This document shows, in pieces, positions 13,177 to 34,978 of a DNA stretch of 37,133 nucleotides. The notes beneath the pieces were generated by a model. It was not told the DNA's origin. It did not search any database and was given only the letters and a program-made list of their open reading frames with translations. The stretch lies in NCBI GenBank assembly GCA_018821245.1, contig JAHJMO010000016.1, positions 67,201-104,333 of the forward strand. The letters are read 5' to 3'. Position 1 is the stretch's first letter. Every line of letters starts with the position of its first letter. Origin of the DNA: Patescibacteria group bacterium. GTDB taxonomy: Bacteria > Patescibacteriota > Microgenomatia > UBA10105 > UBA927. The translations under genes and the position numbers were made by a program.

Positions 13177-14837
13177 AAAATCATTGGAGTCTGAAACACT
13201 TTGTCATCATCGGAATAATACTGTTATCGGCTCTGTTTTTGCGGATATATAAGGTTGATCAGATTCCGCCGTCGCTTTCGTGGGATGAGGTGTCGATAGG
13301 GTATAACGCGTATAGCATCCTTAAGACCGGAAGAGACGAGCATGGAAGGTTTTTGCCGCTTGATGCTTTTGCCGCATACGGAGATTATAAACCGCCTCTG
13401 GCAATTTATTTTACAGTACCGTTTGTTGCGGTATTTGGATTAAATGAACTCTCTGTGCGACTGCCATCCGCACTTTTTGGGACTCTTACAGTGCTAATGA
13501 CGTACTTTCTCGTCAAAGAGCTATTTAGTAAGAAACTTTATAGACTTTATAGACTTTCGACATTTGACTTGCCAACAACAGCGATGCTGTTGTTGGCAAT
13601 CTCTCCCTGGCACATCAACATGTCCCGTGCGGGTTTTGAGGCAAATATCGCATTGTTTTTTATTATTCTGGGTGTTTACTTTATTTTGCTCGCCCGTGAG
13701 AAGCGTGCGTATTGGTACGTAGCCTGGATACCGTTTGTTGCGTCAGTATATACATTTAATAGCGCCCGGTATTTTGCTCCATTATTTGCGTTGGTACTTT
13801 TTCTGTTTTTCCTGAAAGATATAAAAAAACATTGGAAAGAATTTATTACCGGCGTCATAATTGCTCTGGTAATTTTACTTCCTATTGTTCCACATCTGCT
13901 GTCTAAAGAAGCACGGCTTCGATTCGCTGAAGTTAATATTTTTACTGACAGCTCTGTCGTAGCGACAGCAAATGAGCGCATGGCATATGACGGAAATTCC
14001 CTGTTAAGTAAAATAGTTCATAACAGAAGATTAGGGTATACACTGTCATATCTGCGGCATTTTGCAGATAATTTACAACCTTCATTTTTGTTTATTCAGG
14101 GTGATGGGAATCCGAAATTTTCAACCCGTGCCGTTGGGCAGTTATATATTATTGAAGCGCCGCTTATTGCAATGGGAATATTATCCATGTTTTCCGCATA
14201 TCCCAAAATTGCCTGGATACTTATTTTGTGGATTATATTGGCAATATTTCCTGCGGCAACAGCCCGCGAAACACCGCATGCACTGCGGATTTTGAATTCG
14301 CTTCCGACATGGCAGATTTTCATTGCGTTTGGAATTATGAGATTGGTAAATTTCGAAATAAAAGTAATCCGCAAATACAATAAAATAATCCGTTATTCGA
14401 TAATCGCTATTTTGCTGTGTGTATATGGTTTTAGTGTCGGATATTATGTACATAATTATTATTCACATTACGCAAAGAAATATTCCGGAGAATGGCAATA
14501 TGGATACAGGGAGGCAGTGCAATACGCCGAGAGCGTAAAAGACAGGTATGACACGATTGTACTGACCAAGCAAATCGGCAGACCGTATATGTATACGCTG
14601 TTTTACGGCCGTTACGACCCGCAATATTTTTGGGATACGAAGGATGCATATTTTGATATTGCCGGTTTTTACAATGTTGACGGCTTTGGAAAATATAGAT
14701 TTGTGAGCGGTGGCGCTTTGGATTACCCGGGGCGCGTCCTCTATATTCTGCCGCCAACACACGTACCTGATAATATAGATGTCTTAAATACTATACGACG
14801 AGTAGACGGCGAGTCGGCGCTGGTGATATTTCAATAA
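13173..14837 (+). CDS. PMT/ArnT-like (GT39-type) membrane glycosyltransferase, copy 1
   Basis: The 554-residue protein shows the GT39/ArnT plan: one helix, then SWDE (Asp38, Glu39), SIGYNAYSILKTGRDEHG, DYKPP (71-75), the RLPSA helix, VKELF, and the LLAISPWHI-x3-SRAGFEAN block. Such enzymes transfer a sugar from polyprenyl phosphate to an extracytoplasmic acceptor. Residues about 121-136 (KLYRLYRLSTFDLPTT) form an insert between VKELF and the SPWHI block and are encoded by short tandem repeats followed by a perfect hairpin. The gene is a tandem paralogue of the next one, with the same motif order and the same insert. The ATG overlaps the previous TGA. Confidence 0.88.
   Translation: MKNHWSLKHFVIIGIILLSALFLRIYKVDQIPPSLSWDEVSIGYNAYSILKTGRDEHGRFLPLDAFAAYGDYKPPLAIYFTVPFVAVFGLNELSVRLPSALFGTLTVLMTYFLVKELFSKKLYRLYRLSTFDLPTTAMLLLAISPWHINMSRAGFEANIALFFIILGVYFILLAREKRAYWYVAWIPFVASVYTFNSARYFAPLFALVLFLFFLKDIKKHWKEFITGVIIALVILLPIVPHLLSKEARLRFAEVNIFTDSSVVATANERMAYDGNSLLSKIVHNRRLGYTLSYLRHFADNLQPSFLFIQGDGNPKFSTRAVGQLYIIEAPLIAMGILSMFSAYPKIAWILILWIILAIFPAATARETPHALRILNSLPTWQIFIAFGIMRLVNFEIKVIRKYNKIIRYSIIAILLCVYGFSVGYYVHNYYSHYAKKYSGEWQYGYREAVQYAESVKDRYDTIVLTKQIGRPYMYTLFYGRYDPQYFWDTKDAYFDIAGFYNVDGFGKYRFVSGGALDYPGRVLYILPPTHVPDNIDVLNTIRRVDGESALVIFQ
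13536..13572 (+). repeat. mixed 9-bp and 7-bp tandem array inside the first PMT-like gene
   Basis: Two copies of CTTTATAGA (13536-13553) run into three degenerate 7-bp units, GACTTTC (13552-13558), GACATTT (13559-13565) and GACTTGC (13566-13572). The array is in frame and encodes a Leu/Tyr/Arg-rich insert. The same unit type occurs at 15191-15227 and 22790-22817. Confidence 0.75.
13569..13599 (+). repeat. perfect 14-bp inverted repeat with a 3-nt loop in coding sequence
   Basis: TTGCCAACAACAGC (13569-13582) pairs without mismatch with 13586-13599 across the loop GAT. It lies directly after the 7-bp array and encodes LPTTAMLLLAI. The right arm encodes the conserved helix of the family, the left arm the less conserved insert. 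Confidence 0.9.
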
Positions 14838-14839
14838 AT

Positions 14840-16501
14840 ATGAAGAAACAGGGTCGGATGATCATATTGGGGGTAATCATTCTTCTTGCCGTTATTGTAC
14901 GGTTTTGGCATTTAGGAGGGGTGCCACCGAGCCCTGATTGGGATGAGGCAGCTCTTGGGTACAATGCATATAGCATTTTGAAGACCGCAAGAGATGAGTA
15001 CGGAACATTTCTTCCTTTGGCTCTTCGCTCCTACGACGATTACAAGCCGCCGCTTTATATGTATTTGACTGTTCCTTCGGTTGCGGTATTCGGTCTTAAC
15101 ACATGGGCCGTCCGGCTGCCGTCTGCGATTTTTGGCATATTAGCAGTCATCGGGACGTATTTTTTAGTAAAAGAACTATTTGATCAGAAACTTTATAGAC
15201 TTTCGACTTTACAGACTTTTTACTTGCCGACAATAGCTTCGCTATTGTTGGCAATTTCCCCGTGGCACATCCAGTTTTCCCGTATTGCATTTGAAGCAAA
15301 CATAGGAATAACGCTTAATATTTGGGGCGCTTATCTATTGTTGAGGGGAAGAGCATCGTCTTTTGCTTTAAGCATAAGCGCATTTCTTTTCGGCTTGTCA
15401 ATGTATGCGTATCATAGCGAGCGGATCTTTGTACCATTGCTTGTATCGCTTCTGGCGGTTTTATATTGGAAAGACCTGTGGGTAAATAAACGAAGAGTTA
15501 TCACCGCTTTTATTGTCGGAATACTAACCATACTACCGTTGGTTGCGGTATTTACAAATCCCACAACGCTCATGCGGTTGCGCGGAACCAGCTCGTTGTC
15601 CGATCAAACAGCTCTTCTGTCTGACAGCGTACAGCTTTTAGAAGATGATATTAAAGCAGGAAATAAGATTGGTATGGTATTTGATAACAGACGGATTGTG
15701 TGGGCAAAAACCGTACTGGATGGCTATTTATCTCATTTTTCCTTTAAGTGGTTGTTTTTAGACGGTGACCAGCCCAGACATCACGCTCCCGACATGGGGC
15801 TTTTGTATCTTTGGGAATTACCGTTTTTGTTGTGGGGCATGTCGAGTGTTTGGAAAAAAGGCGGAAAGATAGCCATAGTATTATTTGGATGGATGATTAT
15901 TTCACCAATTCCGGCGTCAGTAACAACGGGGCTTCCGCACGCTGTTCGTACCCTCGTGTTTCTTCCGGTATTTCAGGTATTTACTGCGGTTGGAATATGC
16001 CAGTTTATAAAGAAAGCGTTGAGCGTTAAGCGTAAAGTATTTGCGTTACCCTTATCCAGTCTCTTTTTATCTTTTACCTTTTTACTTTTTACTTTTAACT
16101 TTCTTTACTATCTTCACATGTATTTTGTACACATGAACAGGGAATATTCCGAATATTGGCAATACGGGTATAAACAGGCAGTAGAATACGCCCAAGAGAA
16201 TAAAGAACAATATAAGAAAATTGTAGTTTCTACAAAACTGGAACAACCCCATATGTTTTTCCTTTTTTATACGAAATACGATCCCAAAAAGTATTTAGCT
16301 GAAGGCGGGACAGCATCCGGCGGTTTTGCTGAGTACAGGAATAAATTTGACGTTTATGAATTTCGACCGATTGACTGGAACAAGGAAGAGAAAGACGGAT
16401 CCATCCTTTATATCGGCACGCCAAACGAAATCCCTATGGCAAACCTGCAAACGCTAAATTACCTCAATGGCGAAAAAGCGATGCAGATTGCGGATCGCTA
16501 G
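14840..16501 (+). CDS. PMT/ArnT-like (GT39-type) membrane glycosyltransferase, copy 2
   Basis: The 553-residue product parallels its upstream neighbour: PDWDEAALGYNAYSILKT (Asp35, Glu36), DDYKPP (66-71), RLPSA, VKELF and LLLAISPWHIQFSRIAFEANIG, followed by about eight further hydrophobic helices and a C-terminal soluble part with QYGYKQAVEYA. It is a predicted polyprenyl-phosphate-sugar-dependent transferase acting outside the membrane. The two genes are an old tandem duplication with 2 bp between them, and they may differ in acceptor or donor. Three separate short tandem arrays lie in this one gene (15191-15227, 16016-16043, 16063-16105), the last two building the variable loop and helix before YYLHMYFVHMN. 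Confidence 0.88.
   Translation: MKKQGRMIILGVIILLAVIVRFWHLGGVPPSPDWDEAALGYNAYSILKTARDEYGTFLPLALRSYDDYKPPLYMYLTVPSVAVFGLNTWAVRLPSAIFGILAVIGTYFLVKELFDQKLYRLSTLQTFYLPTIASLLLAISPWHIQFSRIAFEANIGITLNIWGAYLLLRGRASSFALSISAFLFGLSMYAYHSERIFVPLLVSLLAVLYWKDLWVNKRRVITAFIVGILTILPLVAVFTNPTTLMRLRGTSSLSDQTALLSDSVQLLEDDIKAGNKIGMVFDNRRIVWAKTVLDGYLSHFSFKWLFLDGDQPRHHAPDMGLLYLWELPFLLWGMSSVWKKGGKIAIVLFGWMIISPIPASVTTGLPHAVRTLVFLPVFQVFTAVGICQFIKKALSVKRKVFALPLSSLFLSFTFLLFTFNFLYYLHMYFVHMNREYSEYWQYGYKQAVEYAQENKEQYKKIVVSTKLEQPHMFFLFYTKYDPKKYLAEGGTASGGFAEYRNKFDVYEFRPIDWNKEEKDGSILYIGTPNEIPMANLQTLNYLNGEKAMQIADR
15191..15227 (+). repeat. mixed 9-bp and 7-bp tandem array inside the second PMT-like gene
   Basis: Units starting with CTTT or CTT alternate with spacing 9, 7, 9 and 7: CTTTATAGA, CTTTCGA, CTTTACAGA, CTTTTTA. 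The total length (32 bp) equals that in the paralogue, although the order of 9- and 7-bp units differs. The encoded residues are LYRLSTLQTFYLP. Confidence 0.75.
15224..15254 (+). repeat. 14-bp inverted repeat with a 3-nt loop, paralogous to 13569-13599
   Basis: TTGCCGACAATAGC (15224-15237) pairs with 15241-15254 across TTC: 13 Watson-Crick pairs and one G-T wobble. Compared with the first copy, one pair has changed from C-G to T-A on both arms, so the stem was kept by a double change. Confidence 0.88.
16016..16043 (+). repeat. 7-bp tandem array, unit GCGTTRA
   Basis: Three units, GCGTTGA (16016-16022), GCGTTAA (16023-16029) and GCGTAAA (16030-16036), are followed by a degenerate fourth. They lie in frame in the second PMT-like gene and encode ALSVKRKV. 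Confidence 0.6.
16063..16105 (+). repeat. 7-bp tandem array, unit CTTTTTA
   Basis: Six units begin at 16063, 16071, 16078, 16085, 16092 and 16099: two exact adjacent CTTTTTA copies (16078-16091), plus CTTTTTA, CTTTTAC, CTTTTAA and CTTTCTT. The array encodes a Phe/Leu-rich hydrophobic stretch (LFLSFTFLLFTFNFL) that forms a predicted membrane helix. Confidence 0.7.
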
Positions 16502-16567
16502 ATATGAAACAATACTCTCAACAATTGCCCGCAGGATTTATTGTTCAGAAACGCATGGATGAATCGT

Positions 16568-18199
16568 ATGAAAAATAAGATTGCTGCTGTGCTGTTTTTA
16601 TGTATTGTTTCAGTTTTCCCGCTTCTTGATCTTCTCAACGCCGGACTGCCGTTTGGTCACGATACACCTGACCACGTAGCGCGAATTGCAAATTTTTATC
16701 AGTCGCTTTCGGAAGGAAACATAATTCCCCGTTGGGCAGAGAAATTGAATTGGGGGTACGGCCATCCTGTTCTCATGTTTTTGTACCCATTGCCATCATA
16801 TCTGACTTCATTTATTCACACGCTTGGCTTTTCTTTCGTTGACAGCACTAAGCTGACACTTGCTATTGCGTACGTTGCGAGCGTCATAGCCATGTATCTA
16901 TGGGCATCTGCTGCTTTTAATAAGCGTGTCGGAATTGTATCGGCAATTCTCTACGGATTTGCGCCGTACCGATTTATAGACTTGTATGTACGTGGAGCCA
17001 TAGGCGAGCATGTGGCGTTCGTTTTCCCTCCGCTCGTTCTCTATTTTCTTCGTAAACGTTCTTTTTTTGGTGCATCATTGTCTCTCGCCGCACTTATTCT
17101 TTCACATAATGCCATGGCCATCATGTTTCTTCCTATTATAGGTTTGTACGGTTTATACCTTCTTTTTTTCGAAGAAAAAAGGAAAATGTTATTCACTATT
17201 CACTATTCACTATTCACTATTCTGGGTTTCGCCCTGTCTGCCTTTTTTTGGGCCCCGGCTTTTTTTGAAGGCAAATATACACTCCGGGATATTGTGACGG
17301 CAGGAGAATTTTCGGATCGTTTTGTGCCATTGACCCGGTTTTTCTATTCGCCATGGACATATGGGGGATCAAATGAATTTTCCAAGTCTTTGGGAATTGC
17401 CCAATGGATGGGTATTGTTGCTGCTGTCGGAGCAATGTGGCGCGCGAAAGAGAAAGCGTTGAAGTGGTTCGTATGCGGAGGATTATTGCTATTGGCCGGA
17501 TCGATATTTTTTATGACATCGTGGTCTTTCGGCATTTGGAATACATTCTCAATATTGCAAAAGTTTCAATTCCCATGGCGACTCTTGTCTGCCGCTGTTT
17601 TCATCGCGGCAATTGTAGGGGCGATGGGTTTGGATTTTATACTTGGAAAAATCAAACGCAATAGAGTCTTCGTATATGTGGGCTTGGTGTTGTTTGTCAT
17701 TCTCACGACTATTCCAATGTGGAAGGCCAAAAGCTATAGTTTGAAACCCGAATCGTATTACACAGGGGTTTATGATAGTACGACAGATACGGGTGAAAGC
17801 AGTCCAATCTGGTCGGTGCGATTCATGGAACATCGTCCGACAGCTCCTTTGGAGATTATCGAGGGTCAAGCGGAGATTGCTGTCCTTGAACGCACAAGCA
17901 CTATACACGGGTACAACATATCGGTAAGCCAAAGGGCGCGATTTGTAGAAAACACTCTCTACTTTCCGGGGTGGAACATATGGGCAAATAATGTAGCGTC
18001 CGATATACAATTTCAGGACCCGTCATACCGAGGCCTTATGACGTTTTGGCTGGAACCCGGCAATTATACGGTTCGGGCAGAATTTGGCGAAACGAAATTG
18101 AGACATGTCGCTAATATTATAGGTGCGATCGGAGTGCTTGTGACTGGTATACTATTATTGTTTCCATTATGTCGGAGAAGAAAAAAACCATATCAATAG
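16568..18199 (+). CDS. 6-pyruvoyl-tetrahydropterin synthase-related membrane protein (probable GT-C)
   Basis: Starting at ATG 16568 gives 543 residues beginning MKNKIAAVLF, a clean first membrane helix; ATG 16541 would add nine residues. The first loop has GHDTPDHVARI (residues 30-40), IIPRWAEKLNWGYGHPVLMFLYPLPSY (from 53), then many helices and a C-terminal soluble domain with YFPGWNIWANN. This is the family labelled PTPS-related in databases (PF10131). The name is historical: the polytopic layout with an early D/H motif looks like a GT-C transferase rather than a pterin enzyme. The C-terminal YFPGW-x-hydrophobic element also resembles the YfhO C-terminal domain. A 7-bp array lies at 17191-17218. 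The gene overlaps the following GT2 by 31 bases. Confidence 0.8.
   Translation: MKNKIAAVLFLCIVSVFPLLDLLNAGLPFGHDTPDHVARIANFYQSLSEGNIIPRWAEKLNWGYGHPVLMFLYPLPSYLTSFIHTLGFSFVDSTKLTLAIAYVASVIAMYLWASAAFNKRVGIVSAILYGFAPYRFIDLYVRGAIGEHVAFVFPPLVLYFLRKRSFFGASLSLAALILSHNAMAIMFLPIIGLYGLYLLFFEEKRKMLFTIHYSLFTILGFALSAFFWAPAFFEGKYTLRDIVTAGEFSDRFVPLTRFFYSPWTYGGSNEFSKSLGIAQWMGIVAAVGAMWRAKEKALKWFVCGGLLLLAGSIFFMTSWSFGIWNTFSILQKFQFPWRLLSAAVFIAAIVGAMGLDFILGKIKRNRVFVYVGLVLFVILTTIPMWKAKSYSLKPESYYTGVYDSTTDTGESSPIWSVRFMEHRPTAPLEIIEGQAEIAVLERTSTIHGYNISVSQRARFVENTLYFPGWNIWANNVASDIQFQDPSYRGLMTFWLEPGNYTVRAEFGETKLRHVANIIGAIGVLVTGILLLFPLCRRRKKPYQ
17191..17218 (+). repeat. four perfect 7-bp tandem repeats, unit ATTCACT
   Basis: Four identical ATTCACT units are followed by a partial fifth (ATTC). 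They are in frame in the PTPS-related gene and encode FTIHYSLFTI at the junction between a charged cytoplasmic loop (EEKRK) and a membrane helix. This is the cleanest array in the window. Confidence 0.92.
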
Positions 18200-18936
18200 C
18201 ACTCGCGGTTTACAACGAAGAACAAAACATCCGCAGGTGTTTGTCTGCCGTATGCGGGTTGGCCTCTGAAATAGTCGTGGTGGACGGGGGATCGCGTGAC
18301 AACACAGTAAGCATCTCAAAAGAATTCGGGGCCAAAGTTATCAAGACCGATAATCCGCCGATTTTTCATATCAACAAACAGAAAGCACTAGACGCATGTC
18401 TCGGGGAGTGGATTTTGCAGCTCGATGCCGATGAAGTAGTCACTCCCGAACTCCGAGAAGAAATACTCAAAACAATTAGACTTTCGACTCCGAACGGTTA
18501 CTATATTCCGCGCAAAAACTTCTTTTGCGGTCATTGGTTAAAAAAGGGTGGACAATATCCCGATTATGTCATTCGACTGGTAAGAAATGGCTTTGCACGG
18601 TTTCCTTGTAAATCAGTTCACGAACAGATCGAGATTCAGGGAAATATCGGATATTTGAAAGAGCCATTGCAACACTTTTCATATAAAACAAAAGAGGATT
18701 ATTGGAGGAAGGCCGATTCCTATACAACACTAACCGCTCAAGAAATGAAAACAAAAGAAAGTTCAAATAATGTGCAAACCTGGATAATATATATGGTACT
18801 AAAACCCTTACAAACATTTTTATCATTATTTATTCGTCACAAAGGATTTATAGACGGGTGGTACGGATTGATTTTTGCTTATTGGTCAGCTCTTCATTTT
18901 CCCATTGCGTACAAAAAATATAGACAGATGAAATGA
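18169..18936 (+). CDS. GT2-family glycosyltransferase, WaaE/KdtX-like
   Basis: The 255-residue product has ISIALAVYNEEQNIRRCL, the nucleotide-binding VDGGSRDNT (38-46), the metal-binding DADE (86-89), NGYYIPRKNFFCGHWLKKGG and a His-containing VHEQIE block, followed by a C-terminal tail with two hydrophobic stretches. This is the full set of WaaE/KdtX-type GT2 motifs; in enterobacteria WaaE adds glucose to the LPS core. In this setting it probably adds a hexose to a cytoplasmic lipid-linked glycan. It overlaps the previous gene by 31 bases and the next by ATGA. Two 7-bp units, GACTTTC and GACTCCG, occur at 18479-18492 just before the conserved NGYYIPR. Confidence 0.9.
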   Translation: MSEKKKTISIALAVYNEEQNIRRCLSAVCGLASEIVVVDGGSRDNTVSISKEFGAKVIKTDNPPIFHINKQKALDACLGEWILQLDADEVVTPELREEILKTIRLSTPNGYYIPRKNFFCGHWLKKGGQYPDYVIRLVRNGFARFPCKSVHEQIEIQGNIGYLKEPLQHFSYKTKEDYWRKADSYTTLTAQEMKTKESSNNVQTWIIYMVLKPLQTFLSLFIRHKGFIDGWYGLIFAYWSALHFPIAYKKYRQMK

Positions 18937-19457
18937 AAAATAATATTTTCGTAGTAATTATTTTTATATATTTATCATTTATCATTGGACATTTATCATT
19001 GGTCCATGCTGATTATGTTCTCCCGTATCCTTCATATATGCCGGGTAATAAGTTGTATAAAGTTTCCCGGATTATTGATCAGGTGAAAAAGTTTTGGTAC
19101 TGGGGATCCATTGCGGGTGTAAAGTATCACTTGGGCTTGTCTGATAAATATCTGGTAGAAGCAAAGACGCTATTTGAATACAAACAATATTTACTGGCAA
19201 CGGATGCGCTCAGGCGCTCGGATACGGAATATATAGAGATACCTCAGTTCATTGTACGGGCAAAAGTAGAAGGGAAAGATATCACCTTGCTGGAAAAAAC
19301 AGTTAAGGAAGCTGCCCAAACACATATACAAATTTTAGATGGTTTTAAACAAACTGTGCCTGCCGAATTTACCTGGACGCCGGAAAAGACCACTCCTACC
19401 ATACTTCCGATCGGTAATCTCATAGAGACATCCATAAACATCAGAGGCCAGAAATGA
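18933..19457 (+). CDS. secreted DUF5667-like protein
   Basis: The 174-residue product has a signal peptide (positive start MKN, hydrophobic core to about residue 24, likely cleavage after VHA at 26). It is followed by LPYPSYMPGNKLYKVSRIIDQVKKFW and KYHLGLSDKYLVEAKTLFEYKQYLLATDALRRSD. The P-G-x-x-L-Y-K start, two amphipathic helices and L-x-x-A-x-x-L-x-E-A pattern match DUF5667-type proteins, which have no assigned biochemical role. It is probably an exported helical protein, unlike the rest of this operon. The signal peptide is encoded by a 7-bp repeat array (18972-19006). Start and stop both overlap neighbours as ATGA. Confidence 0.75.
   Translation: MKNNIFVVIIFIYLSFIIGHLSLVHADYVLPYPSYMPGNKLYKVSRIIDQVKKFWYWGSIAGVKYHLGLSDKYLVEAKTLFEYKQYLLATDALRRSDTEYIEIPQFIVRAKVEGKDITLLEKTVKEAAQTHIQILDGFKQTVPAEFTWTPEKTTPTILPIGNLIETSINIRGQK
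18972..19006 (+). repeat. 7-bp tandem array encoding a signal peptide core
   Basis: Five consecutive 7-bp units: TTATCAT (18972), TTATCAT (18979), TGGACAT (18986), TTATCAT (18993) and TGGTCCA (19000). They encode LSFIIGHLSLVH, the hydrophobic core and end of the signal peptide of the DUF5667-like protein. Confidence 0.8.
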
Positions 19458-20590: not shown

Positions 20591-20629
20591 TTTTACTTAC
20601 GACCGCATTAAAAATTACATATCTTTTTT
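20579..20629 (+). terminator. stem-loop with T run, probable intrinsic terminator
   Basis: AAAGATATGTAATTTT (20579-20594) is perfectly complementary to 20611-20626 across a 16-nt loop, and T residues continue to 20629. The left arm contains the TAA stop of the upstream gene. The stem is AT-rich, with only two G-C pairs, so the hairpin may be leaky. It would separate the operon ending at 20590 from the gene starting at 20652. Confidence 0.6.
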
Positions 20630-20651
20630 GTATCTATTTTCTTATTTTGGT

Positions 20652-22235
20652 ATGAAACGAGTTTGGTTTTTTATTGCGATCATTCCTGCAATTATTGCAG
20701 CCAGAGCTCTATTTAGTCCGGGATTTATACACACTCATGACGGGGAATATCATATCATCCGTATTGTGGAATTTGCCAGAATGTTAAGCGCCGGATATTG
20801 GTTTCCCCGTTGGGCGCCGACACTCAATAGCGGGTACGGTATTCCGATATTTCAATATCATTATCCTTTGCCGAATTATATCGGGTCGTTTGTCAGACTC
20901 TTTACTCATGATGCGGTATATGCATTTCAGATATCCATGGGTTTGGGATATATCTTTGCGTCTTTTGGTTCATTTTTATGGCTTACAAGTCTTTATGGAT
21001 CTTTTGCGGCACTTCTTGGCGCAGTTGCAGGAGCTTTTGTACCGTATTGGTTTGTAGATATATACGTCAGAGGGTCTATCGGAGAAGTGTGGGCGATGGC
21101 ATTGCTTTTTTTCATTCTTTGGGCAATTGAAAAGAAGCGATATGTTTACACAGCTTTGTTATATGGATTATTACTTCTTAGCCATAATATTCTCGGAATG
21201 GTATTTACTCCGTTTCTTTTCATATATATGGTGATTCGAAATATAAAAGGAATCGGGAGCCTCATGTGGGGTATCGGATTATCAGCATATTTTTGGCTCC
21301 CTGCCCTATGGGAACAACAGTATGTAGTAGGACTTAATACAGTTAATTTTCGAGAACATTTTGTCGCCTTGTACGAATTATTGATCCCATCCTGGGGGAC
21401 GGAATTCTCCGGGGGCGGTTTTGGGGGGAATAAAATATCATTTCAATTAGGTGTTATTCCGATAATTATTATTGTTGCATCATTCGCAACGTTCATTCGC
21501 CGGAAAGAGAAACAATCAGATATATTAGCGAGATGGTTCTTGCTTTTAGTTGGGTTAATACTCGTTTTCATACTTCCATGGTCAAAAGGAATATGGGAAG
21601 TAGTTTTGCCACTGCAGTTCATACAATACCCCTGGAGATTATTATCTTTTATGATTCCGGCAACTGCCTTTTTGACCGCTTACCTGACCAGGAAATCAAA
21701 AACACCTTATGGCATCATTGTTTTAGCTATTATGGGTGTGATAGTCACGTTTTCCTATACAAGAAAAGTCCAATACGCTCCCCGAAACGAAGCCTATTAT
21801 ACGGCAAGAAGCAATTTTACCGACGGTACATCGTCCATGGGCAACAGCTTTTCCACCATTTGGACGGGTTGGAAAGACACGCGTCCAGAGTCAGCTGTCA
21901 AAATCAACGGCGGACAGTTAGTGCGTCAGATCCGGTGGAAATATTTAGACAAGTCGTTTGTGGCCTTTATGTCACGCGCGGGAGAGGTGACGATAAACAC
22001 GCTTTATTTTCCCGGGTGGATTGCTATGGTTGACGGCGTCCAAGTGCCCATATCCTATGAGCACGACGGAGTTATCCATGTGCGCGTGGCAGAAGGGGAA
22101 CACGTTATTGAGGTGCGTTTCGTCAATACGCTGCCCAGAACGATCGGCAATATTGTTTCTTTTGTCAGTTTGGCCATGATCGCCTCATGGGGTATACTTC
22201 GTTATATAAGTCGAAAGTATGAAAATTGCAATTGA
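20652..22235 (+). CDS. 6-pyruvoyl-tetrahydropterin synthase-related membrane protein, second copy
   Basis: ATG 20652 gives 527 residues; the TTG at 20628 lies in the terminator T run and is unlikely. The first loop has HTHDGEYHIIRIVEFARML (from residue 27), WFPRWAPTLNSGYGIPIFQYHYPLPNY, then a long run of helices with YVRGSIGEVWAMALLFF and SHNILGMVF, and a C-terminal beta-rich part with LYFPGWIAMVDGVQV. The order matches the gene at 16568-18199, so these are distant paralogues. PF10131-type proteins are probably extracytoplasmic sugar transferases; this is inferred from the fold pattern and the locus. The gene overlaps the next GT4 by 17 bases. Confidence 0.8.
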   Translation: MKRVWFFIAIIPAIIAARALFSPGFIHTHDGEYHIIRIVEFARMLSAGYWFPRWAPTLNSGYGIPIFQYHYPLPNYIGSFVRLFTHDAVYAFQISMGLGYIFASFGSFLWLTSLYGSFAALLGAVAGAFVPYWFVDIYVRGSIGEVWAMALLFFILWAIEKKRYVYTALLYGLLLLSHNILGMVFTPFLFIYMVIRNIKGIGSLMWGIGLSAYFWLPALWEQQYVVGLNTVNFREHFVALYELLIPSWGTEFSGGGFGGNKISFQLGVIPIIIIVASFATFIRRKEKQSDILARWFLLLVGLILVFILPWSKGIWEVVLPLQFIQYPWRLLSFMIPATAFLTAYLTRKSKTPYGIIVLAIMGVIVTFSYTRKVQYAPRNEAYYTARSNFTDGTSSMGNSFSTIWTGWKDTRPESAVKINGGQLVRQIRWKYLDKSFVAFMSRAGEVTINTLYFPGWIAMVDGVQVPISYEHDGVIHVRVAEGEHVIEVRFVNTLPRTIGNIVSFVSLAMIASWGILRYISRKYENCN

Positions 22236-23280
22236 CATATCTCCTCTGAAATCGGGACACGGACAGCGTGGAGTAGGGAAGTATACAAAGTCGTTAATTG
22301 AAGCTTTGGAAAAGTACGAGAAGCGCAATACGTATATTTTATTTACTCGAGGTCAAAATATACCCAAAAATGCGGATTTAGTGCATTATCCTTATTTTGA
22401 TCCATTTTTTCTGACACTACCGTTTCGTAAAACGAAGCCGACTTTAGTTACGGTGCACGACGTAATACCTTTGGTTTTTCCTGACAAATTTCCGGCGGGA
22501 TTACGAGGTAATTTAAAATGGCAAGCCCAAAAAGTATCCCTCAAAGGCGCAGCCAGAATTATTACTGATTCAAATTCATCCAAGCGCGATATTGTCAGAA
22601 TAACAGGAGTTAACGGAAAACGCATCGATGTGGTGTATTTAGCGCCTCCAGCTGCTTATAAACTCATTAAAGATAAAATAATTTTGAGAAAAGTGAGGCG
22701 AAAGTATAAAATCCCCGAAAGTTTTATCATCTATACGGGTGATGTAAATTGGAACAAAAATATCAGTGGCTTACTTCACGCATTTTCTCGACTTTCGACT
22801 TTTGACTTTCGGATTTCAACTAATCTAGTTTTAGTCGGTTCATCATTTCTGAACTTATCCCTTGCCGAAGCCAGAGAGATAAATACATTAATAGATAATT
22901 TACGGCTAAATAATCGCATTATCAGGCCCGGTTATGTGTCTGAAGATGATTTAGTTTGTCTTTATAGTCAGGCATTGTGCTTGGTACAACCGTCCCATTA
23001 TGAAGGGTTTGGTTTGCCGGTACTGGAGGCAATGGCTTGCGGATGTCCTTCTGTTGTGGCAAACAATTCCAGCTTGTCTGAGATAGCCGGACCGTCGATC
23101 CTGGTGGACGCAAACGATGTGCAGTCGATCGCAATGGGCATGGAGAAGGTAATCAGCATGTCGGACACAGAAAGGTTAAACATGGTGAGATTGGGGATAG
23201 AGTGGAGTTCGTTATTTACGTGGAAGAAGGTTGCAGAAAGCACGGCTACGTCGTATGAGAGCGTTTTGGAACAACTATAA
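22219..23280 (+). CDS. GT4-family (GT-B) glycosyltransferase
   Basis: The 353-residue product starts MKIAIDISPL with the GQRGVGKYTKSL loop of GT4 enzymes. The linker region has LVTVHDVIPLVFPD, ITDSNSSKRDI and IYTGDVNWNKNISGLLHAF, and the donor-binding E-x7-E is Glu262/Glu270 (EGFGLPVLE). WbaZ- and RfaB-like mannosyl- or galactosyltransferases look like this; the donor is not known. It should act in the cytoplasm on a lipid-linked acceptor. A four-unit 7-bp array (22790-22817) inserts RLSTFDFRIST in the surface loop after the LLHAF helix. The start overlaps the previous gene by 17 bases and the end overlaps the next by 26. Confidence 0.92.
   Translation: MKIAIDISPLKSGHGQRGVGKYTKSLIEALEKYEKRNTYILFTRGQNIPKNADLVHYPYFDPFFLTLPFRKTKPTLVTVHDVIPLVFPDKFPAGLRGNLKWQAQKVSLKGAARIITDSNSSKRDIVRITGVNGKRIDVVYLAPPAAYKLIKDKIILRKVRRKYKIPESFIIYTGDVNWNKNISGLLHAFSRLSTFDFRISTNLVLVGSSFLNLSLAEAREINTLIDNLRLNNRIIRPGYVSEDDLVCLYSQALCLVQPSHYEGFGLPVLEAMACGCPSVVANNSSLSEIAGPSILVDANDVQSIAMGMEKVISMSDTERLNMVRLGIEWSSLFTWKKVAESTATSYESVLEQL
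22790..22817 (+). repeat. 7-bp tandem array, unit GACTTTC
   Basis: Units GACTTTC (22790), GACTTTT (22797), GACTTTC (22804) and GGATTTC (22811) lie in frame in the GT4 gene. They encode LSTFDFRIS between a helix and the NLVLVG strand, a loop position where extra residues are tolerated in GT-B folds. Confidence 0.85.
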
Positions 23281-25041: not shown

Positions 25042-25056
25042 TGATTGGGGGCAAGT

Positions 25057-26325
25057 ATGGGTATATTGAAAAAAATGACGGCTCGATTGTTTCAACATAC
25101 GGTAGCCCGTGACGGTGTCATAGTATTTGTGGGGGTGATGATAGCCAATGTTGCTTCATACCTGTTCCATTTGCTTATGGGGCGTATTTTGGGGCCCGGC
25201 GGATATGGAGAGTTGTCGTCTCTTCTTTCTATCGTATATATTTTCAGTGTTCCGTTGACCGTCGGTCAAATTGTTTTGGTCAAAGCCGTTTCAGAGCTCA
25301 AAGCACGAGAAGAGACCGGTCAGGTAAAAACTCTTTTTTGGAAGCTTACAAAGGCTTGCACAATAACATGTCTTATAGCACTGCCTTTTGTGATTATGGC
25401 TTCCCCCATAGTTGTGGCCTTTCTGCATATTCAATCGCCCTCCCTTTTCGTACTTGCATATATTCTTTTTGTTTTTTCTCTTCTTACCATGCTGATTGCA
25501 AGTTTGCTTCAGGGATATCAGAAATTTGTGTGGTTTAGTATGCTCGGGGCGGGAATTATCGTCCTTAAACTTATATTCAGTATTCCTGCCGCTTCGTCGG
25601 GAGTCTTTGGGGTAATGCTGGCTACTACAGTATCGGCAGCCATCATGTACGTGGTGTATTTTTATCCTATTCGTTTCGTGTTGAAAGCTACGTTTACGCC
25701 TATGACGATAACCAGGCGGGAAGCTTATGCGTATGCGGTGCCTACGCTTCTTGCGATCCTTGGATCTACATCCTTGTTCTCTACAGACATTATTCTTGTC
25801 CGCCATTTTTTTGAGCCTATTCAGGCGGGATTGTATGCTGCTCTTGCTGTTTTGGGAAAAGTCATATTTTATGCTTCCTCTGCAGTCGGACTTGTTTTTT
25901 TTCCGGTTTTGGCGGAGCGCTGCGCCAAAAGACAAAAAACAAGAAAATTATCCGCTTTCGGCGTGATCATTGTTTGTATGATTTCTTTTGGGATTATCGT
26001 CATATACTTTATGGTTCCGAAGATCGTTGTTTCATTGCTTTTCGGGAGAGCTTATATTGATGCCGCAGAATTGTTGGGTCCGTTCGGAATTTTCCTGTCG
26101 CTTTTTTCAGTCGGTAATTTACTCATGACTATTAACCTCGCGTTGGGTAATACCGGTGTCTGGGTGGCCACGCTCGGATGTGCGGTTTTACAAATACTGG
26201 GCATATCCCTGTTCCACGAAAGCATTGCTGCCGTATTGTGGGTTGATATTATAGTCGGATTGTTGTTCGTAACAGGTGCAGGGGGATATTATCTGTGGTG
26301 CTTCAAAAAAGAGGGACATACATGA
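25057..26325 (+). CDS. Wzx-like polysaccharide flippase (MOP superfamily)
   Basis: The 422-residue protein is almost wholly hydrophobic. It starts with a short basic segment, then IVFVGVMIANVASYLFHLLMGRILGPGGYGELSSLLS, the typical first two helices of MOP-superfamily flippases (RxLGPxxYGxLS), and has roughly twelve helices with YAVPTLLAILGSTSLFSTDIILVRHFFEP in the middle. Wzx proteins move undecaprenyl-diphosphate-linked oligosaccharides to the outer leaflet. ATG 25057 follows a G-rich stretch; the TTG at 25045 is an alternative. It is sandwiched between two DPM-like GT2 genes and overlaps the second as ATGA. Confidence 0.88.
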   Translation: MGILKKMTARLFQHTVARDGVIVFVGVMIANVASYLFHLLMGRILGPGGYGELSSLLSIVYIFSVPLTVGQIVLVKAVSELKAREETGQVKTLFWKLTKACTITCLIALPFVIMASPIVVAFLHIQSPSLFVLAYILFVFSLLTMLIASLLQGYQKFVWFSMLGAGIIVLKLIFSIPAASSGVFGVMLATTVSAAIMYVVYFYPIRFVLKATFTPMTITRREAYAYAVPTLLAILGSTSLFSTDIILVRHFFEPIQAGLYAALAVLGKVIFYASSAVGLVFFPVLAERCAKRQKTRKLSAFGVIIVCMISFGIIVIYFMVPKIVVSLLFGRAYIDAAELLGPFGIFLSLFSVGNLLMTINLALGNTGVWVATLGCAVLQILGISLFHESIAAVLWVDIIVGLLFVTGAGGYYLWCFKKEGHT

Positions 26326-27113
26326 AAAAGTTAAGTCTCATTATACCGGTATATAAACAGGAAAAAACTATCAAGCGGGATATACAGGATGTTCTTTCGG
26401 TGCTCAACGCCCTAAAAATTCCGTACGAGATTATACCTGTCATTGACGGCATGCTTGACCGGAGCTTTGAAGAAGCCCGGATGGTACGCTCTCCTGACGT
26501 TCAAGTGGTGGGGTACAAAACCAATCACGGTAAAGGCTACGCTGTGCGGTACGGATTTGCCCACGCCACCGGCGATGTCATAGGGTTTATGGATGCAGGC
26601 GGAGATTTAAAGCCAGAGGCGCTTCTTGTCATGCTTGCACAGTTTGAGTTTCAAGATGCCGATGTGGTACTTGGCAGTAAACGGCATCCTGATTCAAAGG
26701 TCGATTACCCACGGTATAGAAAAATACTTTCTTGGGGATATCAACAAATCGTTAAAATATTATTTGGGTTGAATGTTACTGATACACAGGTTGGAATGAA
26801 AATATATAAGCGAAAATTATTAGAAGACGTGCTCCCAAGATTACTCGTGAAACAATTTGCGTTTGATATAGAAATGCTTGCTGTAGCCTATCATTTGGGA
26901 TACAGAAAAATATATGAATCACCTGTTGAGATAAACTTTTTATTTTCAAAAACAAGTATTGTCTGGTCAAAATTGTCTCGAGTTATCTATAACATGATAA
27001 CTGATACGTTAGCTGTGTTTTATAGGTTGAAGATTAAACGGTATTACGATAATGCTTCAAAACGAAAATGGCGCTTCGATCCGGAATTAAACTTCAGAAT
27101 TAATATAGGGTAG
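26322..27113 (+). CDS. DPM-like GT2 glycosyltransferase with an atypical DAGGD motif
   Basis: ATG 26322 overlaps the flippase stop. The 263-residue product has LSLIIPVYKQEKTI, IPVIDGMLDRSF, TNHGKGYAVRYGFAHATGDVIGFMDAGGDL and DTQVGMKIYKRKLLEDVLPRL, then FAFDIEMLAVAYHLGYRKIYESPVEI, matching DPM-like GT2 enzymes. Instead of DADL the metal-binding site reads Asp91-Ala-Gly-Gly-Asp95, and the first motif has DGMLDRS instead of DDGSTDGT. The catalytic acids are present but spaced differently. It is a probable polyprenyl-phosphate glycosyltransferase, perhaps with another sugar. It is the last gene before the minus-strand toxin-antitoxin cassette. Confidence 0.82.
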   Translation: MKKLSLIIPVYKQEKTIKRDIQDVLSVLNALKIPYEIIPVIDGMLDRSFEEARMVRSPDVQVVGYKTNHGKGYAVRYGFAHATGDVIGFMDAGGDLKPEALLVMLAQFEFQDADVVLGSKRHPDSKVDYPRYRKILSWGYQQIVKILFGLNVTDTQVGMKIYKRKLLEDVLPRLLVKQFAFDIEMLAVAYHLGYRKIYESPVEINFLFSKTSIVWSKLSRVIYNMITDTLAVFYRLKIKRYYDNASKRKWRFDPELNFRINIG

Positions 27114-27139
27114 ATAAGTACCGCGAAAAACGTTGTAAT

Positions 27140-27808
27140 TTAGGACAAAATTTTATTTGCGACTGCTGGAACGGTTGTCAGGAAGTAGTGTTTTACCTGT
27201 TCCCAGGAAGCCTCAAAAAGTATTTGAGGATCTGGATCTTCCTCTGCGTCGTCAAAGTACGTGAGACTTTTCATAATATGATGATAATTATGCTGGATCT
27301 TGGGATATTGGAAATCAATTCGTTTGATCACATCTGCCAACGGTTCTTTATTTTTTGTATACCAATATAAATCAAAAAAATCCCGTTTTGTTCCGCGTTG
27401 ACTAACCGCAATGATTTTCATAACTGCAATATCTCGGGCATCTAAAATATTAATCATGTTATCGGTAATAAATGGTTGAAGGGGAATAAACTGCGGGTAC
27501 GCAATAAAACTTATTTTTGTTTCTTCAAGGATGCCGTAAAGTGTACCTTTTTCTCTCAAAGATATAGCCCAATTGTATTTGGAAAGAGAGGAAATAAGGG
27601 ATGGCACATCTATTTCCGGCTTGGGAATAAAAAAATCGAGATCAACAGATACACGGTGATCAGTTTGTAAGGCGAGTGCTGTTCCTCCGGCGAGATACCA
27701 TCCTTGGTCTTTTATCCACGTTTGTTGCGAGAGGATCTCAAACGCTTTTTTCGTTTCTTCCCTTAGATGAGTAAATGACAGTTTTACTGGTTTGTGAGAA
27801 TAGTCCAT
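27140..27808 (-). CDS. AbiEii-family nucleotidyltransferase toxin
   Basis: The 222-residue product has the nucleotidyltransferase motif GGTALAL (41-47) followed by DHRVSVDLDFF with the metal-binding Asp56-x-Asp58, and later LDARDIAVMKIIAVSQRGTKRDFFDLYW, the C-terminal signature of the AbiEii/AbiGii (DUF1814) family. These enzymes are toxins of toxin-antitoxin and abortive-infection systems; related MenT proteins modify tRNA. It overlaps the smaller upstream gene by 25 bases and lies on the strand opposite to the glycan operon, convergent with the GT2 before it. The catalytic residues look intact. Confidence 0.85.
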   Translation of the reverse strand: MDYSHKPVKLSFTHLREETKKAFEILSQQTWIKDQGWYLAGGTALALQTDHRVSVDLDFFIPKPEIDVPSLISSLSKYNWAISLREKGTLYGILEETKISFIAYPQFIPLQPFITDNMINILDARDIAVMKIIAVSQRGTKRDFFDLYWYTKNKEPLADVIKRIDFQYPKIQHNYHHIMKSLTYFDDAEEDPDPQILFEASWEQVKHYFLTTVPAVANKILS

Positions 27809-28017
27809 AGTGTTTTACTGCTTTTATGTAATTGCTTTGACGTTTCACACACATGTAAGAGAAGTTGTTTTGAATATTGCTTTCTCATCCAACGTACCTC
27901 ATTATCAGTCCCAAAATCCATAATTCGTTCAATAATATATTTTGCGTTTGTATCTACGTCAATCTTTTTCGGATCTGTATCCCAAAAAAGCGATTGTCTA
28001 AATTGAATGGTTTGCAT
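27784..28017 (-). CDS. DUF6922-like partner (putative antitoxin) of the AbiEii protein
   Basis: The 77-residue protein contains QSLFWDTDPKKIDVDTNAKYIIERIMDFGTDNEVRWMRKQYSKQLLLHV. The LFWD-x-D-P-x-K-I-D start and IIER-hydrophobic-x-x-G continuation match the DUF6922 type of small proteins that sit just upstream of AbiEii toxins. A regulatory or neutralising role is inferred from position and size. Its stop overlaps the toxin start, so translation is coupled. The ATG is about 8 bases from a TATAAT box on the same strand, so the mRNA may be nearly leaderless. Confidence 0.75.
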   Translation of the reverse strand: MQTIQFRQSLFWDTDPKKIDVDTNAKYIIERIMDFGTDNEVRWMRKQYSKQLLLHVCETSKQLHKSSKTLWTILTNQ

Positions 28018-28024
28018 ACTAACT

Positions 28025-28030
28025 ATTATA
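28025..28030 (-). promoter_or_regulatory. -10 box of the toxin-antitoxin operon
   Basis: A perfect TATAAT on the minus strand lies 8-13 bases before the antitoxin ATG at 28017. No good -35 is visible at normal distance. Two direct GTACTA repeats on the plus strand (28039-28044 and 28048-28053), 9 bp apart, lie just upstream and could be an operator for autoregulation. Confidence 0.4.
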
Positions 28031-28051
28031 GCAAAAATGTACTAACGGTAC

Positions 28052-28057
28052 TATAAT
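28052..28057 (+). promoter_or_regulatory. -10 box for the gene at 28071
   Basis: A perfect TATAAT on the plus strand is 13 bases before ATG 28071, giving a predicted leader of about seven bases. It lies back to back with the minus-strand box in a 53-bp gap, so the glycan operon probably restarts here after the cassette. No clear -35 is visible. Confidence 0.45.
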
Positions 28058-28070
28058 TACATAGCTTCTT

Positions 28071-29171
28071 ATGCGCATTCTTATTCTTAATTGGCGTGAT
28101 TTAACCCATCCACGAGCTGGTGGAGCGGAGCTCGTGACCATGGAACATGCAAAAGGATGGGTAAAGGCAGGTCACCGCGTTACTTGGCTTACCGGTTGGT
28201 ACGGAGGAAAAAAAGAAGAAATTGTTGATGGTGTTCATATTGTCCGAAGAGCTGGATCGCTTACCATCTATTTATATGCAATGATATACCTACTTATCAA
28301 CAGTAGATTAATTGATGTTATTGTTGACGAAGCGCATGGATTTCCATTTTTCTCTCCTCTTTTTACGAAAAAGCCAGTTGTTTTGTTTATTCATGAGATA
28401 GCTGGAGAAATTTGGGATTACATGTTTCCATTTCCAAAGAACATAATCGGAAAGTTTTTGGAATCGACATATTTTAGGTTGTATAAGAAGTGTTACGTTT
28501 GGACAGATGCGCCCTCAACAGTGGATGAACTTGTTGAACGGGGAATCCCGCGGAATCGCTGTTTTGCCATTCCCTGTCCTATTGTTAAACCAAGAACCAA
28601 GAACCAGCAACTACGAACCAAGAACCAGCAACCAACCTACATCTTCGTCTCCCGCGTTGTGCGAATGAAAGGATTAGATGAGGTGATTAAAGCATTCGCA
28701 TTCACCTATCGTGAGGAACCAAAATCAAAACTCTGGATTGTTGGAGGTGGGGAAGATGCGTATATTGAAGAATTAAAAACCATGATTGTGGAATATGGTA
28801 TTGAAAAGAATGTTGTATGGTTCGGAATAGTTTCTGAAAAGAAAAAATATGAACTCATGTCGCGGGCGCAAATACTTCTTCACGCATCTGTGAAAGAAGG
28901 ATGGGGGCTGGTGGTACTTGAGGCTGCTTCCGTCGGAACACCAGCAATTGTATATAATGTTTCAGGTCTTCGTGATGTAGTGAAACATAATAAGACCGGA
29001 ATAGTATTACAAACAAATTCACCGCAGGAGATGGCTAGAGAAGCGATGGTATTATTAAAAAATAAACGTATGTATGCTTTGTATCAGCAAAATGGAAAAA
29101 AGTGGGTTGATAGCTTACGATGGGACGATGTAATAAAAAAAAGTCTTGTTCTATTAAAAAAAGCAACTTAA
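28071..29171 (+). CDS. GT4-family (GT-B) glycosyltransferase
   Basis: The 366-residue product starts MRILILNWRDLTHPRAGGAELVTMEHAKGW; the RAGGAE loop is characteristic of one GT4 subgroup. Further motifs are VIVDEAHGFPFFSP, VLFIHEIAGEIWDYMFP, the domain-two start YIFVSRVVRMKGLDEVIKAF, GGGEDAYIEELK and the donor-binding E-x7-E at Glu276/Glu284 (EGWGLVVLE). It is a cytoplasmic NDP-sugar transferase with unknown donor. Residues about 173-189 (KPRTKNQQLRTKNQQP) form an insert encoded by seven tandem 7-bp units right at the hinge between the two Rossmann domains. The gene has its own -10 box and starts a plus-strand operon after the toxin-antitoxin cassette. Confidence 0.92.
   Translation: MRILILNWRDLTHPRAGGAELVTMEHAKGWVKAGHRVTWLTGWYGGKKEEIVDGVHIVRRAGSLTIYLYAMIYLLINSRLIDVIVDEAHGFPFFSPLFTKKPVVLFIHEIAGEIWDYMFPFPKNIIGKFLESTYFRLYKKCYVWTDAPSTVDELVERGIPRNRCFAIPCPIVKPRTKNQQLRTKNQQPTYIFVSRVVRMKGLDEVIKAFAFTYREEPKSKLWIVGGGEDAYIEELKTMIVEYGIEKNVVWFGIVSEKKKYELMSRAQILLHASVKEGWGLVVLEAASVGTPAIVYNVSGLRDVVKHNKTGIVLQTNSPQEMAREAMVLLKNKRMYALYQQNGKKWVDSLRWDDVIKKSLVLLKKAT
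28588..28636 (+). repeat. seven tandem 7-bp units, consensus AACCAAG
   Basis: Units in order: AACCAAG, AACCAAG, AACCAGC, AACTACG, AACCAAG, AACCAGC, AACCAAC. They are exactly contiguous over 49 bp and in frame in the GT4 gene. The encoded RTKNQQ repeats with a 7-residue period and sits in the interdomain linker. Confidence 0.93.
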
Positions 29172-29172
29172 T

Positions 29173-30006
29173 ATGACTTCTCCTCTTGTTTCTATTATCA
29201 TCACGACAAAAAACGAAGCTGCACATATTGTTTCCTGTTTGAAGAGCATCAGGAATCAGACGTGTTCCGACAGTGAGACAATCGTCGTTGACAATCAATC
29301 AAAAGATAGCACGAAAACAATAGCAAAAACATTTGATGCACATGTTTTTAACGCAGGACCAGAGAGATCTGCTCAACGAAACTATGGTGCCAAAAAAGCA
29401 AAAGGTGAATATCTGTTGTTTATTGATGCGGATATGATTCTCACTCCAAAAGTCGTAGAAGAATGTGTATCAAAAATCCGCGAACTGCGAACTGCGAACC
29501 GAGAACTACGTGCCCTTGTTATTCCTGAAAAATCAATCGGTATCGGATTCTGGGCTCAGTGTAAGGCGATGGAACGTTCATTTTATGAAGGCGTCGCGTG
29601 GATGGAGGCGGCTCGGTTTTATCGGAAAGACATTTTTATGAAGATAGGCACCTATGACGTTCATCTGACAGGTCCGGAAGATTTTGAACTGCCGCAAAGG
29701 GTAAAAGCCATGTATGGCAATAGCGCCGTTGGTCGGATTACGTCCTACATAGTACACGATGAGGGACGTATTTCACTTCCGAAACTTCTTCAAAAGAAAT
29801 ACTACTATGGAAGAAAAATGAGACGGTATCAGTTGGTTACGACAAGTAAAAAATATTTCAGAAAACAGGCTAATCCGCTCGTTCGATATGCGCTCTTTTT
29901 TCGAAAACCCACCCGTTTATTAAAAGATCCAATCCATGCACTCGGTATGTTTATCATGAAGACGTTGGAGATCTTGGCGCTCGCGTATGGCGGGATAAAA
30001 GGTTAG
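29173..30006 (+). CDS. GT2-family glycosyltransferase
   Basis: The 277-residue product begins MTSPLVSIIITTKNEAAHIVSCLKSI and has VVDNQSKDST (38-47), GPERSAQRNYGAKKAKGEYLLFIDADMIL with metal-binding Asp85-Ala-Asp87, and late FYRKDIFMKIGTYD and TGPEDFELPQR motifs. This combination is common in GT2 enzymes of surface-glycan loci. A C-terminal hydrophobic segment (HALGMFIMKTLEILALAYGG) may bind the membrane. Residues 103-114 (RELRTANRELRA) come from four 7-bp units at 29482-29509 and form an exposed charged helix before LVIPEK. It follows the GT4 gene after one base. Confidence 0.9.
   Translation: MTSPLVSIIITTKNEAAHIVSCLKSIRNQTCSDSETIVVDNQSKDSTKTIAKTFDAHVFNAGPERSAQRNYGAKKAKGEYLLFIDADMILTPKVVEECVSKIRELRTANRELRALVIPEKSIGIGFWAQCKAMERSFYEGVAWMEAARFYRKDIFMKIGTYDVHLTGPEDFELPQRVKAMYGNSAVGRITSYIVHDEGRISLPKLLQKKYYYGRKMRRYQLVTTSKKYFRKQANPLVRYALFFRKPTRLLKDPIHALGMFIMKTLEILALAYGGIKG
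29482..29509 (+). repeat. four tandem 7-bp units, consensus GAACTGC
   Basis: Units GAACTGC (29482), GAACTGC (29489), GAACCGA (29496) and GAACTAC (29503). Rotated by one base they read AACTGCG, AACTGCG, AACCGAG, AACTACG, the same family as the AACCAAG/AACTACG units 850 bp upstream in the neighbouring gene. Confidence 0.88.
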
Positions 30007-34965: not shown

Positions 34966-34978
34966 AAAATCATATATG
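34951..34978 (+). repeat. 14-bp perfect tandem duplication at a gene junction
   Basis: AAAAATCATATATG occurs twice in direct succession (34951-34964, 34965-34978). The first copy ends in the ATG that overlaps the epimerase TGA stop; the second contains the ATG used by the next gene. The ATG of the first copy now leads only to a 5-codon frame. Confidence 0.92.

What the first reader, a model, noticed from the sequence alone, without database searches (positions are those of the whole stretch)
13536..29510. A family of 7-bp tandem arrays lies in frame inside at least seven glycan genes
Arrays with a 7-bp period occur at 13552-13572, 15191-15227 (mixed 7/9), 16016-16043, 16063-16105, 17191-17218, 18972-19006, 22790-22817, 28588-28636 and 29482-29509. 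The units differ (ATTCACT, AACCAAG, GAACTGC, TTATCAT, CTTTTTA, GACTTTC, GCGTTRA), but the period is the same, all are on the coding strand, and none introduces a stop although a 7-bp period passes through all three codon phases. They fall in loops, linkers or membrane-helix ends. A shared period without shared sequence argues against simple copying of one repeat and for a mechanism that fixes the length, such as a polymerase or primer-slippage step or a dedicated system. Heptanucleotide repeats (STRRs) are known from filamentous cyanobacteria, mostly outside genes; I do not know of a description for this setting.
Basis: partly seen in the sequence, partly recalled or inferred. Interest (0 to 1): 0.88.

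Follow-up and report, generated by a model that had tools for sequence, protein, structure and literature searches.

The report
Dispersed seven-base repeats inside bacterial genes
A tiny uncultured bacterium has about 66 short blocks of seven-base tandem repeats, most of them inside ordinary genes at spots that tolerate extra amino acids, and the same repeat words recur in unrelated bacterial phyla, which suggests the blocks are copied or written by one widespread but unidentified process.

Summary
The arrays are real and genome-wide. The 1.08-Mb CPR-like genome holds 66 period-7 arrays against ~0 expected; periods 8 and 9 have ~15 each, and 4, 5, 6, 10 and 11 have almost none. About 90% lie in genes, as does 89% of the DNA. 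They are not glycan-specific: hosts include tsaD, uvrD, glmS, recR, leuS, ligase and HMG-CoA reductase. New points: a preferred total length of ~31 nt; different arrays at the same loop in different lineages; a substitution at every would-be in-frame stop (28/28, against 13/79 off-frame), implying arrays are already imperfect on arrival; and specific imperfect arrays shared between unlinked loci, with ~56 matches to one block in a distant class member. Best reading: ~31-bp heptamer modules are dispersed by copying, then turned over locally; in genes only in-frame, stop-free copies survive. Enzyme unknown; RT, DinB and MutS loss do not explain it. Heptamer repeats are a known kind; this is a new, mostly intragenic variant.

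The parts
13535..13559 (+). mixed 9/7-bp array ACTTTATAG ACTTTATAG ACTTTCG in PMT-like gene 13173-14837
   Evidence: identical 25-mer at G000:C24:30631-30655
15190..15227 (+). mixed 7/9-bp array around GACTTT in PMT-like gene 14840-16501, at a loop of variable length
   Evidence: the same loop carries other arrays in G010 and G027
16015..16037 (+). weak 7-bp array AGCGTTR in gene 14840-16501
   Evidence: score 10
16065..16102 (+). 7-bp array ACTTTTT/ACTTTTA in gene 14840-16501; would-be in-frame TAA reads TTA
   Evidence: G044 has a CAATTTT array at the same loop
17190..17222 (+). perfect 7-bp array ATTCACT in membrane protein gene 16541-18199 (LFTIHYSLFTIL)
   Evidence: further copies of the unit on C14, C17 and C23
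18970..19002 (+). mixed heptamers ATTTATC/ATTGGAC in DUF5667 gene 18933-19457
   Evidence: near copies at C28:73431, C32:13593 and C14:51615
22788..22811 (+). 7-bp array GACTTTC in GT4 gene 22219-23280
28588..28635 (+). 7-bp array AACCAAG (imperfect) in GT4 gene 28071-29171
29480..29507 (+). 7-bp array GCGAACT in GT2 gene 29173-30006
13173..14837 (+). host gene, PMT/PMT_2 membrane glycosyltransferase
   Evidence: Pfam PF13231/PF02366
14840..16501 (+). host gene, PMT_2 membrane glycosyltransferase with two to three arrays
   Evidence: Pfam PF13231; homologues in 55 of 59 relatives
16541..18199 (+). host gene, PTPS_related membrane protein
   Evidence: Pfam PF10131

Best explanation
These are members of dispersed families of heptamer (and octamer/nonamer) arrays. 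A block of about 31 nt (roughly 4.5 heptamers, imperfections included) is copied in one event to a new, structurally permissive site; a plausible route is template switching or templated insertion during repair, with an existing array as donor. Afterwards unit-wise slippage makes neighbouring units more alike and slowly changes the unit. In genes only copies that keep the frame and have no in-frame stop survive, so arrays sit in surface loops and helix ends of otherwise conserved proteins. Shown: register, length preference, shared units, shared imperfect blocks, stop suppression, reuse of the same loops. Inferred: single-event copying and the repair route. Unknown: the enzyme, and why 7.
For: Imperfect blocks recur at unlinked loci: a 29-mer with the same variant unit on C3 and C23, near copies on C10 and C24, a 25-mer shared by window 13535 and C24. 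Unit order is shared more often than after shuffling: 12 array pairs versus 4.3 +/- 2.5. In G062 one composite block gives 56 matches, several 35-37-nt pieces at 97-100% (alignments). Few units with heavy recurrence: 35 classes instead of 63.7, 111 identical pairs instead of 2.35; 4 of 10 units of G011 are shared, p = 0.0008. Length mode 30-33 nt, with a dip at 20-26 nt, for period 7, and a similar ~30-nt range for 8 and 9. A 7-nt step is a frameshift, so genic arrays can hardly have grown unit by unit; and 28 of 28 would-be in-frame stops are altered versus 13/79 off-frame, so the imperfection was probably present when the array arrived. Median net gain versus G011 is 8.5 aa, close to array length minus one unit. 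Neighbouring units are more alike than distant ones: identity 0.83 falling to 0.60 over five units.
Against: In G000 the block-sharing signal is modest (12 versus 4.3; the highest of 20 shuffles reached 9) and depends on a common vocabulary; the strong dispersal case is another genome of the class. No target-site duplication, end sequence or enzyme was found. Exact sharing of units across phyla needs either very wide transfer or a sequence-biased writer. About 10 arrays show almost no net length gain over G011, so some may overwrite rather than insert, or G011 may have its own insert there.
Confidence: 0.5

Rival explanations
1. In-situ reiterative synthesis: a polymerase stutters in a 7-9-nt register during replication or end repair and writes about 24 nt of error-prone, self-templated sequence in one event, with a strong sequence preference that explains the shared vocabulary.
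For: Strict register with 8 and 9 as minor classes; constant block length across genomes; walk-like change of the unit along long arrays; an almost empty intergenic site in congeneric G077 where G042 and G062 have different heptamer runs; strong trinucleotide bias of units.
Against: Specific imperfect blocks, variants in order, recur at unlinked loci, which independent synthesis would not give. Y-family polymerase (DinB) is absent from the most array-rich genomes and RT shows no association.
Confidence: 0.27
2. Ordinary replication slippage of short repeats, filtered by selection.
For: Slippage-like unit copying occurs within arrays: neighbour similarity and 14-bp alternation. MutS is absent from 37 of 40 genomes tested.
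Against: Without MutS, periods 1-4 should be favoured, yet periods 2-6 have no arrays at score 14. Lengths are peaked, not decaying. Stepwise 7-nt growth inside essential genes passes through frameshifts, and perfect stop-containing copies could not survive.
Confidence: 0.1
3. The arrays are functional DNA, RNA or protein elements kept by selection (binding arrays, phase-variation tracts, flexible linkers), so convergence explains the shared units.
For: Array hydropathy follows that of the host protein (r = 0.43, p = 0.0009); arrays sit in loops.
Against: No correlation with immediate flanks (r = 0.12). A relative (G011) has 8 instead of 66 arrays and G023 none in 160 kb. Arrays are spread over genes and gaps in proportion to DNA and over unrelated gene functions. 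The hydropathy match is what a survival filter would give.
Confidence: 0.08
4. Assembly artefact or chance.
For: The genome is a draft of 33 contigs, presumably from a metagenome.
Against: The same arrays occur in closed genomes (G011) and in cultured strains such as Flavobacterium limnosediminis and Calothrix brevissima; null counts are about zero.
Confidence: 0.02

Closest known systems
Heptameric simple sequence repeats of bacteria, including cyanobacterial STRRs and the G-rich GGGAATC/GGGGATT repeats of Xanthomonas and Nostoc (PMC4692102, citing Mrazek 2007)
   Same: Seven-base unit, short arrays dispersed over the genome, over-representation of period 7, and a reported clear preference for about four units.
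   Different: Those are reported mainly outside coding regions and the four-unit preference was linked to G-quadruplexes. Here ~90% are in genes, the units are mostly AT-rich without G-tracts, yet the length preference is the same, which argues that quadruplex formation is not needed to explain it.
TAACTGA direct repeats of marine Beggiatoaceae, Cyanobacteria and Bacteroidetes (PMC4679880)
   Same: Heptamer arrays of 2-6 copies shared by distant phyla, origin by transfer suspected, some in ORFs.
   Different: One unit dominates there, mostly upstream of starts, with genic copies mostly at protein ends. Here there are 35 unit classes and copies lie centrally in conserved proteins, including stop-containing units with the stop altered. 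No TAACTGA-class array was found in G000.
Tandem repeats of Borg elements (PMC9879509)
   Same: Recently formed, independently arising in-frame repeats in ORFs and gaps.
   Different: Borg repeats in ORFs give perfect amino-acid repeats; here the 7-nt unit passes through all three codon phases and the block is short.
Rickettsia palindromic elements and other in-frame mobile repeats (from memory)
   Same: Dispersed short sequence inserted in frame in loops of ordinary genes.
   Different: Those are palindromes of about 100 bp or more; these are direct heptamer arrays of ~31 nt.

Membership tests
Heptameric SSR / STRR | tandem units of 7 bp in clear excess over other periods | tested here: met
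   66 versus 0-18 for other periods below 14, null about 0
Heptameric SSR / STRR | preference for about four units | tested here: met
   mode 30-33 nt in G000; similar in G011 and in other-phylum loci
Heptameric SSR / STRR | mainly intergenic location (as reported for Xanthomonas, Nostoc and Beggiatoaceae) | tested here: not met
   56 inside ORFs, 4 at ORF edges, 7 intergenic; coding fraction 0.886
TAACTGA repeats | unit TAACTGA | tested here: not met
   unit absent from the G000 list
Phase-variation (contingency) tract | repeat number differs between siblings and switches the frame or promoter | not testable with these tools
G-quadruplex heptamer repeats | runs of at least three G per unit | tested here: not met
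   commonest units AAAAGTC, AACCTAC, AACAATT, AATAGTG
Reverse-transcriptase-borne repeat (DGR, retron) | RT gene present wherever arrays abound | tested here: not met
   RVT_1 in 4/20 array-rich and 5/20 array-poor genomes

The most novel reading that the evidence does not exclude
A dedicated, widely shared process, not linked to RT or Y-family polymerase, writes or pastes ~31-nt heptamer modules from a small common vocabulary into bacterial chromosomes across phyla, reshaping loops of essential proteins; it would be a minimal mobile element with no coding capacity of its own.
Probability: 0.25. Interest if true: 0.85.

Novelty: new variant of a known kind. Interest (0 to 1): 0.62.

Why it matters
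Heptamer repeats have been noted for decades without a mechanism. Four constraints found here (fixed register, ~31-nt block, shared vocabulary across phyla, imperfection present on arrival in genes) make their origin testable, weaken G-quadruplexes as the general reason for the four-unit preference, and point to a so far unnamed source of in-frame insertions in essential proteins.

Tried and rejected
Glycan-gene specificity: rejected, hosts are general. MutS loss as cause: absent almost everywhere, rich or poor (0/20 versus 3/20). RT: no association. DinB: 9/20 array-rich versus 16/20 array-poor, so not required. Viral carriage: only 2 of 2.9 million viral contigs hold the commonest 32-mer. 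Core-plus-variable-linker architecture for 8-mers: only a weak trend. Defined block boundary for AAAAGTC (starts at ACTTTTG in 6 of 10 own arrays): suggestive, but the cross-phylum count is forced by the search pattern and inflated by a repeated element in Nostocales. Hydropathy match to immediate flanks: none.

Full report
Observation. The window lies on a 104-kb contig (C18) of a 1.08-Mb, 33-contig genome, CPR-like by size and relatives; its name was not established. TRF and an autocorrelation scan find the period-7 arrays at 16065, 17190, 22788, 28588 and 29480; the 13535, 15190 and 18970 arrays are mixed 9/7 or two-unit arrays and 16015 is weak. I read the whole genome in pieces and counted arrays by period. 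At a score of 12 there are 66 of period 7, 16 of period 8, 18 of period 9, and 0-5 for each of periods 2-6 and 10-13; at a score of 14 there are none of periods 2-6 or 10. A 5th-order Markov null gives about 0. Within coding sequence period 7 has 55 and codon shuffling gives 0.0. Part of the period-9 class is collagen-like codon repeat.

Where they are. With a simple ORF caller (967 ORFs, 88.6% coding), 56 of 67 period-7 arrays are inside ORFs, 4 at edges, 7 between. One intergenic pair (ends of C17 and C33) is a contig overlap. Hosts have clear relatives in the closed genome G011 and include TsaD (one period-7 and three period-8 arrays), UvrD, HMG-CoA reductase, GlmS, RecR, LeuRS, ATP-dependent DNA ligase, a 5'-3' exonuclease and Glu/Leu dehydrogenase (three arrays). 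Alignments place the arrays in loops of variable length; median net gain over G011 is 8.5 aa, and TsaD aligned to a solved relative shows small inserts at three of its arrays and almost none at the fourth.

Recurrence at the same loop. In the 14840 glycosyltransferase, one loop carries a mixed GACTTT array in G000, a 9-mer array in G010 and TTACGAG in G027; another loop carries CTTTTTA in G000 and CAATTTT in G044; other relatives have none. In G011, loops orthologous to G000 arrays show an excess of lag-7 self-similarity (3.38 versus 2.09, sd 0.14) and not of lag 6, 8 or 9; lags 5 and 10 show smaller rises. At least two of these loops hold G011 arrays with other units.

Lineage differences. 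G011 (same family, closed, 1.02 Mb) has 8 arrays at the same threshold, and G023 none in 160 kb. Over 280 genomes of the class, 195 match a panel of units (six from G000 and six controls of the same composition); first-look candidates range from 1 to 118 per genome, a rough measure only.

Vocabulary. The 66 arrays fall in 35 unit classes (63.7 expected for random genomic 7-mers), with 111 identical-unit pairs (2.35 expected). Four of ten G011 units are shared (p = 0.0008), as are 21 of 173 arrays of other-phylum loci with AAAAGTC excluded (p = 0.001). Those loci hold 173 other period-7 arrays, 23 of period 8, 16 of period 9, 13 of period 10, and 3 of each of periods 4 and 6.

Length. Total length has a mode at 30-33 nt with a dip between 20 and 26 nt for period 7, and a similar ~30-nt range for periods 8 and 9; other-phylum arrays peak in the same range. 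Xanthomonas and Nostoc heptamers are reported to prefer four units, there linked to G-quadruplexes (PMC4692102). AT-rich units without G-tracts show the same preference.

Stops. A heptamer array reads through all frames, so a unit containing a stop trinucleotide must give an in-frame stop every 21 nt. In G000, 26 genic arrays (periods 7 and 8) have such units; each has a substitution at every would-be in-frame stop, and in about nine it is the only irregularity. All 28 in-frame stops are altered, against 13/79 in the other two frames and 32/273 on the other strand. That genes are open is survivorship. The informative part is that such arrays exist at all: a perfect copy would have broken the gene, so they were most likely imperfect on arrival. 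From the mismatch rate of stop-free arrays (about 1.6 per array) the expected survival is roughly 10%, compatible with the observed share if the pool of strands is stop-rich (my estimate, not a tool result).

Copying or stutter. Imperfect blocks recur at unlinked places in G000 (12 pairs versus 4.3 +/- 2.5 after unit-order shuffling). In G062 a 141-nt intergenic block has 56 matches, several of 35-37 nt at 97-100% with the same irregularities, in changing combinations with other modules. At one intergenic site, G077 has about 12 nt where G042 and G062 have 140-230 nt of different heptamer runs that begin alike. Long arrays drift in unit along their length (some long stretches are two neighbouring arrays joined), so local unit copying also acts. 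Together I favour dispersal of pre-formed modules plus local turnover, with in-situ reiterative synthesis as the main rival.

Enzymes. MutS is missing in 37 of 40 genomes regardless of array density; RT is in 4/20 rich and 5/20 poor; DinB in 9/20 rich and 16/20 poor. None is required. The absence of periods 2-6 in a MutS-less genome argues against plain slippage.

Limits. Literature searched was open-access only; the 2007 survey behind the general heptamer excess was seen only through a citing paper.

Noticed in passing
window 34945-34984: 14-bp repeat TATATGAAAAATCA x2.9 across the junction of the epimerase-like gene (ends 34965) and the next ORF (from 34937); not a heptamer array.
   Followed up: no
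G011 loops orthologous to G000 arrays (tsaD and the C10:4130 gene): G011 carries short palindromic inserts (e.g. CACTTCCGATGTG...CACATCGGAAGTG) in frame at the very loops where G000 has heptamer arrays.
   Followed up: partly
G000:C32 and C17: Many 9-bp repeats of the type ATTAGTCCT/ATAAGTCCT clustered on contig C32.
   Followed up: no
G000:C10:28619-29232 and C23:77-145: Long collagen-like (GXT) 9-bp codon repeats in ORFs.
   Followed up: no
G000:C19:12534-13151: A reverse transcriptase gene (RVT_1, 340-aa frame) of unknown context.
   Followed up: no
L206, L212, L219, L256, L264, L294, L302, L308 and others (cyanobacterial loci): The ACTTTTG array sits in a repeated context (flank ccgccttgcggtactagt) in many cyanobacterial loci.
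   Followed up: partly
G062, intergenic regions: Intergenic DNA is a mosaic of ~33-nt heptamer modules in changing order, about 50 places for one module.
   Followed up: partly
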